A stretch of DNA of 64,000 nt, taken from contig NZ_VJZZ01000010.1 of assembly GCF_009659535.1 (NCBI RefSeq), positions 186,001 to 250,000 of the forward strand, in the 5' to 3' direction. This document shows positions 51,724-55,599 of this stretch, piece by piece. The translations under genes and the position numbers were made by a program. The notes beneath the pieces were generated by a model. That model saw nothing but the letters and a program-made list of their open reading frames with translations. It did not search any database and was not told where the DNA came from. The DNA is from Aggregicoccus sp. 17bor-14. GTDB taxonomy: Bacteria > Myxococcota > Myxococcia > Myxococcales > Myxococcaceae. Position 1 is the stretch's first letter. The number at the start of each line of letters is the position of its first letter.

Positions 51724-52179
51724 TCAGTTCCCTTCGTCGTAGTCGTCGTAGTCCGACGGATCGTATGGAGGCTGGCGCGCATCGAGCCAGCCCTGCAGGA
51801 TGAACTGCGCGGCCATCTGGTCGATGACCTCGCGCCGCTTCGCGCGCGACACGTCCGCCTCCAGCAGCGTGCGGGTGGCCGCGACCGTGGACAGGCGCTC
51901 GTCCCAGAACTCCACCGGAAGTCCCGTGGCCGCCGTCAGCTGGTCGGCGAACTTGCGGGACGCCTCGGCGCGCGGGCCCTCGCTGCCATCCATGTTGAGC
52001 GGCAGTCCCACCACGAAGCGCTCGGCCTCGTGCTCCTGCACGAGCGCCTTCAGGGCGGTGAGGTCGGCCTTCAGGTTGGTGCGGCGCACCGTGGTGACGC
52101 CCTGGGCGGTGAGCCCGAGTCCGTCCGACACGGCGACGCCGATGGTCTTGGTTCCCACGTCCAGCCCGAAGGTGCGCAT
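51724..52179 (-). CDS. ruvX: RuvX/YqgF Holliday-junction resolvase-like nuclease
   Basis: 151 residues. RNase H-like fold with the acidic motifs LDVGTKTIGVAVSD (first Asp), VGLPLNMDGSEGPRAE and WDERLSTVAA, and a final Asp in VIDQMAAQFILQ. It acts in Holliday-junction resolution or 16S rRNA 5-prime processing. The C-terminus is an acidic Tyr/Asp tail (PSDYDDYDEGN). It forms an operon with mltG, a common pairing in bacteria. Confidence 0.95.
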   Translation of the reverse strand: MRTFGLDVGTKTIGVAVSDGLGLTAQGVTTVRRTNLKADLTALKALVQEHEAERFVVGLPLNMDGSEGPRAEASRKFADQLTAATGLPVEFWDERLSTVAATRTLLEADVSRAKRREVIDQMAAQFILQGWLDARQPPYDPSDYDDYDEGN

Positions 52180-52386: not shown

Positions 52387-53805
52387 ATGAGCTTCCTGAG
52401 TGGCGCACTGCACATGCTGGACAGTCTCAACCCGGTGTCGAAGCTGCTGGACGCGGCGGGCGATGCGCTCGGGCTTCCGCCGGAGGTGAAGCACGCGCTC
52501 AAGATCGGCGCCGGCTTCGCCACGGGCAACGTGGTCATGATTGCCACGGGCGCAGCAGACGCGGCCGAGGACGCCGCGCGCCATATTCCTGCGAGGACGG
52601 AGTACTCCCCCGGGGGCTCGGGCGGGCAGCAGAGCTGCCCCGGCTATGCGCCCCCGGCGGGCGGGAGCCGAGCTCCGGTGGGCCCCGATCCGCAGGCGGG
52701 AAGGCTGGACCCCCGCGTGCTCGAGTACCGGGACGCGCTGCGCACGGTGTCCTCGAACTTCGAGCTCTTCGACGTCATCGACGGCAGCAACAACGACAAG
52801 TTCAGCTACCAGACCCTGGGGAAGGTCCGTGACAACGGCCAGGTTCCGGCGGACGTGCGGAAGGCGGCGGACTTCCTCCTCAGCCACCCCGAGTACCTGC
52901 GCCAGCTCGACACGGCGCACCGGGGCGGTAACCCCGACGGCACCATCAGCCGCAAGGACCTGGACCAGGCGCTGCGCAACGTGGACAAGGCCATCGCCGA
53001 GCACGGCGTGCGCGAGCCCTGTGATGCGCCCCCGCCCTGTGCGCCGCCGCCTCCGCCCTCGGGCGGCACGCCCTCGACGCCCCCGCCTCCGGGTGGAACC
53101 CCCTCCACGCCCTCGCCGGGAACGGGCGGCTCGGGCTCGCCGCTGGACCCCGAGATCCACGACTACCTCTCCGCGCTGCGCACCCTCGAGGCGAACTTCC
53201 CCACGATGGACGGTGCGGCGGGCAGCGTGAACGCGCGCCTCTCGCTCGAGGACCTGCGCAACATGGCGAGCGACCTGCGGCTCTCGCCCGAGCTGCGCAA
53301 GGCTGCGCAGTTCCTCTCCACGAATCCCGGCTACTTCGAGCGCCTGGATGGCGCAGGTGGCAGCGCGAACGACGACGCGGTCGACCTGCAGGGCGTGCGC
53401 TCGGAGATCGGCCAGGTGCAGGCGGACCTGCGCAAGTACGGCGCGCCGCCACGCTCCGGGAGCAGCAGCGGCTCCGGCGCCAGCAGCATCGGCGACATCG
53501 TGCGCGACCCGAGCATGAGCATCGAGGAGAAGGTCGAGGCGGTCCTCTCCTCGGTGCTGGACGGCATCGACTCGGAGATCTCCCGCACCATGGATGACCT
53601 GGCGGCTGCCCAGGACAAGGCCGCGCACATGAAGGACGGCGGCAACCAGGCCCAGGAGAGCGCGGACTCGGACGTGCAGAAGCTCAGCATGCGCCTGCAG
53701 AAGCTCGTGGAGAAGCGCAAGGCCATGTTCGACCTGATGAGCAACATGTCCCAGAAGTTCAACGAGATGGCGAACACGGCCATCTCCAACCTGGGGCGCG
53801 CGTGA
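52387..53805 (+). CDS. Putative type III secretion translocator-like protein (HrpF/NolX/HrpK-like modules)
   Basis: 472 residues from ATG at 52387 with a GCAGGAGAG ribosome site. A hydrophobic helix (HALKIGAGFATGNVVMIATG, ~36-55) is followed by two copies of a ~100-residue module, at 107-208 and 253-352. Each has LDP...Y..ALRT, a Gly/Asn/Asp loop, (V/L)RKAA.FL...P.Y...LD and a final helix. The first copy has an EF-hand-like loop (GGNPDGTISRKD). Pro-rich linkers separate them. The last ~100 residues form long helices ending in LQKLVEKRKAMFDLMSNMSQ, reminiscent of EspA-like needle or translocator tails. The next gene encodes a TPR protein of chaperone type. No secretion genes lie in the window. 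Assignment is by pattern only. Confidence 0.55.
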   Translation: MSFLSGALHMLDSLNPVSKLLDAAGDALGLPPEVKHALKIGAGFATGNVVMIATGAADAAEDAARHIPARTEYSPGGSGGQQSCPGYAPPAGGSRAPVGPDPQAGRLDPRVLEYRDALRTVSSNFELFDVIDGSNNDKFSYQTLGKVRDNGQVPADVRKAADFLLSHPEYLRQLDTAHRGGNPDGTISRKDLDQALRNVDKAIAEHGVREPCDAPPPCAPPPPPSGGTPSTPPPPGGTPSTPSPGTGGSGSPLDPEIHDYLSALRTLEANFPTMDGAAGSVNARLSLEDLRNMASDLRLSPELRKAAQFLSTNPGYFERLDGAGGSANDDAVDLQGVRSEIGQVQADLRKYGAPPRSGSSSGSGASSIGDIVRDPSMSIEEKVEAVLSSVLDGIDSEISRTMDDLAAAQDKAAHMKDGGNQAQESADSDVQKLSMRLQKLVEKRKAMFDLMSNMSQKFNEMANTAISNLGRA

Positions 53806-53846
53806 GCCGCGCCCTCGACCCGGTCACCCCAGAGGCGGAGGACACC

Positions 53847-54338
53847 ATGGACACGCAGAGCGAGATGGCAGCACGGCTGAGGGCGTACGCGCGCGGGGAG
53901 CTGACGTGGGCGCAGGTGGAGGGGATGACCTTCGAGGAGGCCAAGGCCATCGCCCAGGTGGGCTGCGAGCTGGCGGCCGCGGGACAGCTGGAGGAGGCGC
54001 GGGTGCTCTTCGAGGGGCTCGTCGAGGGCAACCCGCGCGACGCGGCCGCCCGCGCCGCCCTGGGCACCGTGTACCAGAAGCTGGGGCGCAGCCAGGAGGC
54101 GCTCGCGCAGTACGACGCGGCGCTCGCGCAGGAGCCCAAGAACCCGGTGGCGCTGGGCAACCGCGGTGAGCTGCGCCTCAAGCAGGGCAACCGCGAGGGC
54201 TTCCAGGACCTCGCCCACGCGGTGGAGGCGGACCCGGCGGGCCTCACGGCCGCCGGCCGCAGGGCCAAGGCGCTGGTGAAGGCGATCGCGCTGGGCGCCG
54301 TGGAGCGCTTCCACGCGCAGGGAGCCCCCAAGGCCTGA
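53847..54338 (+). CDS. TPR protein, SycD/LcrH-like class II type III chaperone candidate
   Basis: 163 residues from ATG at 53847, which has GGAGGACACC upstream; a GTG at 53802 overlapping the previous stop (GTGA) is the alternative. Three TPR units are visible: AIAQVGCELAAAGQLEEARV, AALGTVYQKLGRSQEALAQ and ALGNRGELRLKQGNREGFQ. Three TPRs after an N-terminal helix, in ~165 residues, is the size and layout of class II type III secretion chaperones (SycD, LcrH, IpgC), which bind translocators. It directly follows the translocator-like gene. It could also be an ordinary small TPR protein. Confidence 0.6.
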   Translation: MDTQSEMAARLRAYARGELTWAQVEGMTFEEAKAIAQVGCELAAAGQLEEARVLFEGLVEGNPRDAAARAALGTVYQKLGRSQEALAQYDAALAQEPKNPVALGNRGELRLKQGNREGFQDLAHAVEADPAGLTAAGRRAKALVKAIALGAVERFHAQGAPKA

Positions 54339-54471: not shown

Positions 54472-55599
54472 CTACGGTTGGGGCGAGGTGGCAGCAGGGG
54501 AGGGCTGCGCCTCGGCATCCGCAAGCAGCAGCGCCTTCACCTTGCGCAGGCTCTCGCGGGTGCGCTCCACGAAGGGGTTCTCCGAGCCGATGCGCTCGGC
54601 GGCCTCGAGCGTGCGCTCGTAGATGCCGATGGCCTTGGTGAGCAGCACCCGCACGCGGCTGCGCACCTCCTGGCGGTAGGCCTCGGCCTGCTCGGCATCG
54701 AGCTCCGGAGGCACCGGCGTGTTCACCATCTGCGCATGGAGGTTCTCGTACATGCTGCCCACCTGCGCCCCGGAGGCCGTGGCCCACTGGCCGTTGCCCG
54801 CGCGGATGGAGCGCAGGTAGTGACCCTGCGCAGAGAGCAGCAGCTCGGCCTTGTGCTCCAGGTCCTTCGCGAGCCCGTCCGCGCCGTGCGAGGGGTCCAG
54901 CTTCGCCGCCTCGAAGTTGAGCCGGTAGATCTCCCCGAGGAAGAAGTGAGCCTGGGCGGGGTAGTAGCTGTCCACCTCGCCCGCATCCGAGACGCTGCCG
55001 TAGAGCGACAGCGCCTGGCGCAGCGTGCCCTCGGCGCGCTCGGCGTCGCCCGACTCGAGCTCGCACACGCCCTGCTGCACGCGCGCCTCGATGCGCCGGC
55101 CCGCGGGCAGGTCGTCGCGCGCAGCGAGCGCGCTCAGCACCCGGACGGCCTCGGGGTAGCGCTCGAGGTGGTACTCCGCCTCGGCGAGCCGGAACGAGGC
55201 CTCCAGCGCATCGCCCGTGCCATGGACCGGATCCGCGAGCTGCGCAAAGCGGGCCTGCGCGTCCGCCCAGCCCTCGGTGCGCTCGTAGGCGAGCCCCGAC
55301 TGCAGCAGCGCATCGCGCCGGTGGGCGCTCTGGGGGAAGCGGTCGATGATGCGGTCGAAGACGCGCGCCGCGAGCGCGAAGTCGCCGGCGGCGAAAGCGG
55401 CCGTGCCCTTCGCATGGAGCTCCGCGTCGTTGAGCCCTTCCAGGCCGGGGTCTCCCACCACCTGCTCGGGCGGGTAGGCCACCTCCTGGCGCTGTGCGCG
55501 CGCGTCCGCCTCGTGCCCCGCGCGGCTCGCGCCGCTGCAGCCTGCGAGCCCCAGCGCAAGGCTGCCCACCAGCATCCATCCCCGACGAACCATCGCCAT
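54472..55599 (-). CDS. TPR lipoprotein
   Basis: 375 residues. Signal peptide (MLVGSLALGLAGC) with lipobox LAGC. Mature part: TPR-like helical pairs (AELHAKGTAAFAAGDFALAA, HRRDALLQSGLAYERTEGWA, DALEASFRLAEAEYHLERYP) to ~residue 230, then a helical C-terminal region (LTKAIGIYERTLEAAERIG). The layout resembles the AglT/GltE-type TPR lipoproteins of the myxobacterial gliding machinery, but none of the other glt genes are nearby, so the link is only a possibility. Ribosome site GAGGACA. It is outer- or inner-membrane anchored. Confidence 0.75.
   Translation of the reverse strand: MAMVRRGWMLVGSLALGLAGCSGASRAGHEADARAQRQEVAYPPEQVVGDPGLEGLNDAELHAKGTAAFAAGDFALAARVFDRIIDRFPQSAHRRDALLQSGLAYERTEGWADAQARFAQLADPVHGTGDALEASFRLAEAEYHLERYPEAVRVLSALAARDDLPAGRRIEARVQQGVCELESGDAERAEGTLRQALSLYGSVSDAGEVDSYYPAQAHFFLGEIYRLNFEAAKLDPSHGADGLAKDLEHKAELLLSAQGHYLRSIRAGNGQWATASGAQVGSMYENLHAQMVNTPVPPELDAEQAEAYRQEVRSRVRVLLTKAIGIYERTLEAAERIGSENPFVERTRESLRKVKALLLADAEAQPSPAATSPQP

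What the first reader, a model, noticed from the sequence alone, without database searches (positions are those of the whole stretch)
52387..54338. Orphan translocator-like protein with a class II (SycD-like) chaperone, without a secretion apparatus
Seen: a 472-residue protein with a hydrophobic helix, two homologous ~100-residue modules (107-208 and 253-352) and a long helical C-terminus, followed by a ~163-residue three-TPR protein. Known: type III translocators are encoded next to class II TPR chaperones, and HrpF/NolX/HrpK-type proteins carry repeated modules of this flavour. M. xanthus uses a needle-less type III-like system (T3SS*) in contact-dependent prey killing. Inference: this pair may be a substrate or adaptor of such a system encoded elsewhere, separate from the apparatus genes. 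That would be a new component for a predation machine.
Basis: partly seen in the sequence, partly recalled or inferred. Interest (0 to 1): 0.7.

Follow-up and report, generated by a model that had tools for sequence, protein, structure and literature searches.

The report
Surface protein and chaperone for T3SS(2)
A conserved two-gene unit in myxobacteria encodes what is probably an exported surface (tip or translocator-like) protein and its dedicated chaperone for a poorly understood second type III secretion machine, so that machine may have the outer parts it was thought to lack.

Summary
In detail: a 472-aa protein (two NolX/HrpK modules, C-terminal helical hairpin) is followed by a 163-aa SycD-fold TPR protein. 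The reading [quoted passage not shown] is supported; the link to the predation system T3SS* is not. The host genome has no T3SS* export gate. It has one SctV, in the clade of the "short" Myxo locus, T3SS(2). Across relatives the pair, nearly always between ruvX and a TPR-lipoprotein gene, is in every readable genome with that SctV clade (23 of 23) and in none of six without it, one of them with T3SS* only; nine genomes with the pair lack the T3SS* SctV. The protein's last ~40 residues match the end of gene 1 of the T3SS(2) cluster, which weakly resembles T3SS needle/pilin families. I conclude, by inference, that the pair is a T3SS(2)-exported tip/translocator-type protein and its chaperone. 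Published work says Myxo systems lack needle, tip and translocon. Limits: needle similarity is sub-threshold; the chaperone lacks the two SycD groove tyrosines and the partner lacks the PxLxxP motif; NolX modules also occur in unrelated proteins; no binding or secretion was tested.

The parts
52387..53805 (+). 472-aa modular protein P0001, the proposed T3SS(2)-exported surface protein
52387..52653 (+). N-terminal region (aa 1-89): mildly hydrophobic segment 38-56, conserved LGLPP and TEYxP...GYA motifs
   Evidence: alignment A1, hydropathy
52705..53010 (+). NolX/HrpK module 1 (aa 107-208), EF-hand-like helix-loop-helix pair
   Evidence: Pfam PF16937/PF05819, AF2 pLDDT >90
53143..53442 (+). NolX/HrpK module 2 (aa 253-352)
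   Evidence: internal repeat z = 21, AF2
53500..53802 (+). C-terminal box 'MSIEEK' plus helical hairpin (aa 372-472); the last ~40 residues match the C-terminus of gene 1 of the T3SS(2) cluster
   Evidence: HMM among 3747 ORFs, hhalign 94.8-98.4%, AF2 hairpin
53847..54338 (+). 163-aa SycD/LcrH-fold TPR chaperone P0002
   Evidence: TIGR02552 48.7 bits, below cut-off; AF2 pLDDT 95; Foldseek 3gz1, 2vgx, 3wxx top three
51724..52179 (-). RuvX/YqgF family gene, conserved upstream flank of the insertion site
   Evidence: synteny and empty-site comparison
54472..55599 (-). TPR lipoprotein gene, conserved downstream flank; adjoins ruvX directly in genomes where the pair is absent

Best explanation
P0001-P0002 is an exported-protein/chaperone pair of the second, 'short' Myxo type III system, T3SS(2). 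P0002 binds newly made P0001 in the cytoplasm and keeps it soluble and export-competent (inferred). P0001 is then exported by the T3SS(2) gate (SctRSTUV), powered by the SctN-SctL unit encoded elsewhere (inferred). Its needle-subunit-like C-terminal helix docks on, or co-polymerises with, the filament made by gene 1 of the T3SS(2) cluster, and it displays the N-terminal segment and the EF-hand-like NolX/HrpK modules outside the cell as a tip or translocator-type adaptor touching the target membrane (inferred). Shown here: pair conservation, module identity, chaperone fold (predicted), shared C-terminal module, co-occurrence with the T3SS(2) SctV. Not shown: binding, export, polymerisation, target. 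I put association with T3SS(2) at about 0.8 and the specific tip/translocator role at about 0.45.
For: SctV tree: three clades (flagellar-type, T3SS*-type, short-type); the own SctV lies in the short clade at 100/100. Pair present in 23/23 readable tree-confirmed short-clade genomes and absent from 6/6 readable sites without it (G019, G020, G040, G043, G046, G048); Fisher p = 2e-6, ignoring relatedness. Nine genomes with the pair have no T3SS* SctV (G000, G006, G011, G026, G039, G045, G054, G057, G059). An HMM from C-termini of T3SS(2) gene 1 finds the pair's partner family among 3747 ORFs (best 1.2e-7, first unrelated ORF E = 1.6); hhalign gene 1 vs P0001 family 94.8%, E 5e-8; vs the Anaeromyxobacter-like group 96.6%, E 6e-10. 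Gene 1 hits HrpA pilin in 9/19 members and T3SS_needle_F in 6/19. HrpK/NolX modules. SycD-like fold, 34% identical over nearly the full length to a T3SS*-cluster chaperone that passes the LcrH/SycD cut-off. The partner diverges faster (27-52% identity) than the chaperone (46-74%), as expected for a surface protein with a cytoplasmic chaperone. Genomes with a T3SS keep one SctN even when only T3SS(2) remains.
Against: Needle/pilin similarity is below curated cut-offs, and the PDB profile match is only E 0.04-0.06 among coiled-coil noise; the gene 1 profile finds no needle in the PDB. Fold search of P0001 found no significant relative. The chaperone scores below the SycD cut-off, has Ala36/Ala43 where PcrH has the two groove tyrosines, and the partner lacks the PxLxxP motif. 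NolX modules occur in proteins with no visible T3SS link. No secretin was seen in the T3SS(2) cluster. One incomplete genome (G024, 87%) has the chaperone end but no detected SctV.
Confidence: 0.6

Rival explanations
1. P0001 is an injected effector or secreted adhesin of T3SS(2), not a tip or translocon part; P0002 is its secretion chaperone. The C-terminal needle-like helix is only an export or gate-docking signal shared with gene 1.
For: Variable module number and fast divergence; NolX modules also stand alone in other proteins; only mild hydrophobicity.
Against: A fixed chromosomal site in most genomes and a C-terminal box conserved from Myxococcaceae to Anaeromyxobacter-like genomes look structural; members from the latter carry a stronger hydrophobic stretch of the translocator kind.
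Confidence: 0.2
2. P0001 is a minor filament/needle subunit and P0002 works like the class III needle chaperone YscG/PscG, holding the polymerising C-terminal helix in its TPR groove.
For: Shared C-terminal module with gene 1; loss of the class II groove tyrosines and of the hexapeptide motif; literature notes that TPR proteins also chaperone needle subunits (PMC3443056).
Against: Foldseek ranks class II chaperones first; no YscE-like co-chaperone gene was seen; the protein is far larger than a needle subunit.
Confidence: 0.25
3. One reading: the pair is a substrate or adaptor of the predation system T3SS* encoded elsewhere.
For: The T3SS* clusters carry related SycD-like chaperones; the own genome keeps an SctL-SctN pair whose SctN is 79% identical to the T3SS* one.
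Against: No T3SS* SctV in the own genome; nine pair-bearing genomes lack the T3SS* SctV; a genome with T3SS* only has no pair at the site.
Confidence: 0.07
4. The pair has nothing to do with type III secretion: an EF-hand-like protein and a generic TPR partner.
For: Both kinds of module are found in unrelated contexts; TPR and helical hairpins are common folds.
Against: Co-occurrence with the short-clade SctV with empty sites elsewhere, the C-terminal module shared with T3SS(2) gene 1, and HrpK/NolX plus SycD as best matches together.
Confidence: 0.08

Closest known systems
HrpF/NolX/HrpK type III translocators (Xanthomonas, rhizobia, Pseudomonas)
   Same: Carries the imperfect ~110-residue module, present in 1-3 copies in HrpF/NolX (PMC5483457) and varying in number across the family here; Pfam PF16937 over cut-off; fast-evolving; can be encoded away from the hrp cluster (PopF of R. 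solanacearum, PMC5483457).
   Different: Only the N-terminal part of the profiles matches; the C-terminus is a needle-like helical hairpin not covered by the NolX/HrpF profile matches; paired with a SycD-fold chaperone; a soil myxobacterium instead of a plant symbiont or pathogen.
Class II translocator chaperones SycD/LcrH, IpgC, PcrH, AcrH
   Same: Three TPRs plus C-terminal helix; top Foldseek hits; adjacent to a translocator-like gene; related to a T3SS*-cluster LcrH-type chaperone over nearly the full length.
   Different: Below the LcrH/SycD equivalog cut-off; the two groove tyrosines are alanines; partner lacks the PxLxxP hexapeptide.
Short Myxo NF-T3SS / T3SS(2), MXAN_5643-5654 of M. 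xanthus
   Same: The pair co-occurs with its SctV clade and shares a C-terminal module with its gene 1.
   Different: The pair is encoded elsewhere (38-280 kb away where both lie on one contig) and I found no description of it as part of the system; that system was described as lacking needle, tip and translocon (PMC3459982).
Needle-less T3SS* (MXAN_2434-2464)
   Same: Has related SycD-like chaperones and the SctL-SctN unit.
   Different: Its SctV clade is absent from this genome and does not track with the pair.

Membership tests
HrpF/NolX/HrpK translocators | HrpK1/NolX module by curated profile | tested here: met
   PF16937 36.0 bits (cut-off 30.9) on P0001; NolX matches 16/24 members, best 1.8e-12
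HrpF/NolX/HrpK translocators | Module repeated in variable copy number | tested here: met
   Two copies in P0001 (z = 21); fewer or more in relatives
HrpF/NolX/HrpK translocators | Match along the rest of the family profile, including the C-terminus | tested here: not met
   Best matched stretches cover only positions 16-65 of 251 (HrpK1) and 16-81 of 436 (NolX)
HrpF/NolX/HrpK translocators | Type III export and insertion into a target membrane | not testable with these tools
   needs experiments
Class II (SycD/LcrH) chaperones | Three TPRs plus flanking helices with SycD-like fold | tested here: met
   AF2 pLDDT 95.2; Foldseek 3gz1, 2vgx (TMt 0.82), 3wxx; VIA Z 17.4, rmsd 3.9, 147 residues of 3wxx_E; unrelated TPR proteins score nearly as high
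Class II (SycD/LcrH) chaperones | TIGR02552 above curated cut-off | tested here: not met
   48.7 bits, cut-off 104.8
Class II (SycD/LcrH) chaperones | Two conserved groove tyrosines | tested here: not met
   Aligned through a T3SS*-type chaperone to PcrH they fall on Ala36 and Ala43 (feature from PMC3443056)
Class II (SycD/LcrH) chaperones | Partner carries the PxLxxP-type hexapeptide | tested here: not met
   Absent in P0001; 4/34 members, as in shuffled sequences (4.0)
Class II (SycD/LcrH) chaperones | Binds the neighbouring translocator | not testable with these tools
   needs pull-down
T3SS needle/pilin subunits (SctF, HrpA) | Curated profile match above cut-off | tested here: not met
   T3SS(2) gene 1: HrpA 24.9 bits (cut-off 34), needle_F best E 0.017; best partner match 0.057
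T3SS(2) component | Co-occurs with the short-clade SctV and absent without it | tested here: met
   23/23 vs 0/6 readable sites
T3SS(2) component | Shares sequence with a cluster-encoded component | tested here: met
   C-terminal module shared with gene 1
T3SS* component | Co-occurs with the T3SS* SctV clade | tested here: not met
   Nine genomes with the pair but no T3SS* SctV; G019 with T3SS* only has no pair at the site

The most novel reading that the evidence does not exclude
The earliest-branching non-flagellar type III system, thought to lack needle, tip and translocon, in fact has a needle-like subunit (gene 1 of the short cluster) and a modular tip/translocator protein with its own chaperone encoded at an unlinked, conserved site, and it shares one SctN-SctL unit with T3SS*. 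It would then be a working contact machine with its own unknown target, and the claim that the first NF-T3SS could not deliver proteins would have to be reopened.
Probability: 0.4. Interest if true: 0.8.

Novelty: new variant of a known kind. Interest (0 to 1): 0.6.

Why it matters
T3SS(2) is conserved across the suborder but has no known function and has been described as a relic or as possibly unable to secrete. A dedicated exported-protein candidate and chaperone, found where that machine is, make its function directly testable with a two-gene deletion. They also bear on how injectisomes evolved from flagella: the argument of Abby and Rocha (PMC3459982) that the ancestral system was not a contact-dependent delivery system rests partly on the missing needle and translocon.

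Tried and rejected
Searching genome contigs with P0001 alone found no relatives; the genome search did. Sequence search of P0001 against solved structures gave nothing, and Foldseek/VIA of the P0001 model gave only generic helical hairpins, flagellins among them; I do not use that as evidence. The gene 1 profile against the PDB gave a hydrophobic region of a pore-forming protein, taken as chance. The idea that NolX modules alone mark a translocator was dropped, because they also occur in stand-alone proteins and inside an unrelated protein. The T3SS* assignment was rejected by co-occurrence. Two attempts at a class-wide profile search failed on the server, so the distribution outside the order is unknown. 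Genomes with a short-type SctV but no detected pair (G017, G021, G023, G031) could not be scored: ruvX was not found there and the flanking contigs end at or near the site. G036 has the pair at a different site.

Full report
What is there. The window holds two adjacent genes on the + strand: a 472-residue protein (52387-53805) and a 163-residue TPR protein (53847-54338). Both have the codon composition of real genes. The first protein has two homologous modules (107-208, 253-352; z = 21 against shuffles). AlphaFold2 folds both with pLDDT mostly above 90, as helix-loop-helix pairs that look EF-hand-like, followed by a C-terminal helical hairpin.

What the parts look like. Pfam HrpK1/HrpF (PF16937) matches the modules over its curated cut-off, and NolX matches 16 of 24 relatives. 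The TPR protein's best NCBIfam match is LcrH/SycD, below cut-off. Its AF2 model (pLDDT 95) ranks IpgC, SycD and AcrH first among PDB chains, and VIA aligns 147 residues of an AcrH-type chain of 151 (Z 17.4, rmsd 3.9). Other TPR proteins score almost as high, so fold alone is weak. It is 34% identical over nearly its whole length, including the N-terminal part outside the TPRs, to a chaperone in the T3SS* cluster of a relative that passes the LcrH/SycD cut-off.

Conservation. The pair is found in 36 genomes counting this one (one with only the chaperone half on its contig), nearly always between ruvX and a TPR-lipoprotein gene. The chaperone is conserved (46-74% identity) and the partner is not (27-52%). 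Members in Anaeromyxobacter-like genomes show no NolX modules and have instead a more hydrophobic central region, but keep the C-terminal boxes.

Which machine. The genome has one SctV. A tree of 58 SctV/FlhA proteins gives three well supported clades: flagellar-type, T3SS*-type and a third; the own protein is in the third. That clade's gene cluster (own: L002:12441 to L003:1255) reads gene 1 - SctI-like - SctJ - unknown - SctQ - FliO-like - SctR-S-T-U-V (R, S, T and U assigned by eye from their sequences). It fits the 'short' Myxo locus of Abby and Rocha (PMC3459982) and T3SS(2), MXAN_5643-5654, of M. xanthus (PMC10196010); this identification rests on gene content, distribution and the two-cluster layout, not on a locus-tag match. 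T3SS* (MXAN_2434-2464) would be the second clade, absent here.

Co-occurrence. Among sites that could be read, all 23 genomes with a tree-confirmed third-clade SctV carry the pair, and six sites in genomes without that clade lack it: in G020, G040, G043, G046 and G048 ruvX lies next to the lipoprotein gene with no pair between, and in G019 neither the chaperone nor the C-terminal profile finds anything there. Fisher p is 2e-6, but genomes are related, so it is only a guide. Nine pair-bearing genomes have no T3SS*-clade SctV; G019 has T3SS* only. G024, 87% complete, has the chaperone end and no SctV found; it also holds T3SS*-like chaperone hits, so a gap in its assembly is likely. Where both lie on one contig the pair is 38 to 280 kb from the apparatus.

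A shared C-terminal module. An HMM built only from the C-termini of gene 1 of the T3SS(2) clusters was run over 3747 ORFs from the pair loci. Its best hits are the pair's partner proteins (best 1.2e-7); the first ORF outside the family has E = 1.6. Single f1-family members, P0001 included, match weakly or not at all on their own; the profile-profile comparison carries that link: gene 1 vs P0001 family 94.8% (E 5e-8), gene 1 vs the second partner group 96.6% (E 6e-10), the two partner groups 98.4% (E 7e-15). Gene 1 itself shows repeated sub-threshold matches to HrpA pilin (9/19 members), needle_F (6/19) and PF06266 HrpF (9/19). The combined C-terminal profile reaches a needle-complex chain and a needle-tip fusion in the PDB only at E 0.04-0.06, amid coiled-coil noise. 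The shared module is therefore well supported, its needle identity only suggestive. Abby and Rocha state that SctF should have been found in Myxo systems if present.

One ATPase. The own genome has one SctN over the curated cut-off, next to SctL and away from the T3SS(2) cluster. The same search found one in each of the other five genomes whose only SctV is the third clade, one in each of three genomes with both T3SS* and T3SS(2), and none in the six genomes tested that have no SctV. The own SctN is 79% identical to the one in a T3SS* cluster. I infer that T3SS(2) uses this SctN-SctL unit and that both systems share it where both exist.

Mechanism and limits. The most likely reading is that P0002 holds P0001 ready for export by T3SS(2), and that P0001 sits at or in the filament made by gene 1, exposing its modules to a target. 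Export, binding and target are inferred. Against a canonical translocator-chaperone pair: Ala36/Ala43 in place of two groove tyrosines, no PxLxxP motif beyond chance, no match to the rest of the HrpF/NolX profile. These facts leave room for a needle-type chaperone mode, and for an effector role. [quoted passage not shown] The HrpF/NolX relation might hint at a eukaryotic target, but that is speculation.

Noticed in passing
L097:12740-13912 (G022, T3SS*-type cluster): 390-aa protein with a DUF1521 domain (51 bits, cut-off 23.6) and a GDPH motif, followed directly by a SycD-like chaperone gene. DUF1521/NopE1-type proteins are type III-secreted, calcium-activated self-cleaving proteins elsewhere (PMC6506597); a candidate T3SS* substrate, where effectors are reported as unknown.
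   Followed up: partly
G000:C11:163167-165233 (L109:13167-15233): Isolated SctL-SctN pair in a genome without the T3SS* export gate; one SctN per T3SS-bearing genome tested suggests that T3SS* and T3SS(2) share the ATPase.
   Followed up: partly
L002:12441-12887 (own T3SS(2) cluster, gene 1): 148-aa needle/pilin-like protein with a nearly invariant C-terminus (SNIMKVRHDSAKAAINNIR) at the head of T3SS(2) clusters; literature says Myxo systems lack a needle.
   Followed up: partly
L178:7525-8681, L179:6449-7638, L180: Second copies of the chaperone (~60% identical) in G011, G016 and G032, each next to a 225-243-aa glycine/leucine-rich partner that keeps the TEL...GY motif but has no modules or C-terminal box.
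   Followed up: no
L162:6381-9095, L161, L163, L164: In genera g5/g16 a further pair (~440-500-aa protein plus ~397-aa TPR protein) lies between ruvX and the chaperone pair, on the opposite strand; possibly another substrate/chaperone set.
   Followed up: no
L092:7214-8887 (G023): A NolX-like module appears to be inserted in the middle of an unrelated protein that lies next to ABC-transporter-like membrane genes.
   Followed up: no
L097:12252-12476, - strand: 74-aa ORF in a T3SS*-type cluster whose end (FVANLMKKLNEIAMSVIGKI) resembles needle C-termini by eye; no convincing family hit.
   Followed up: partly
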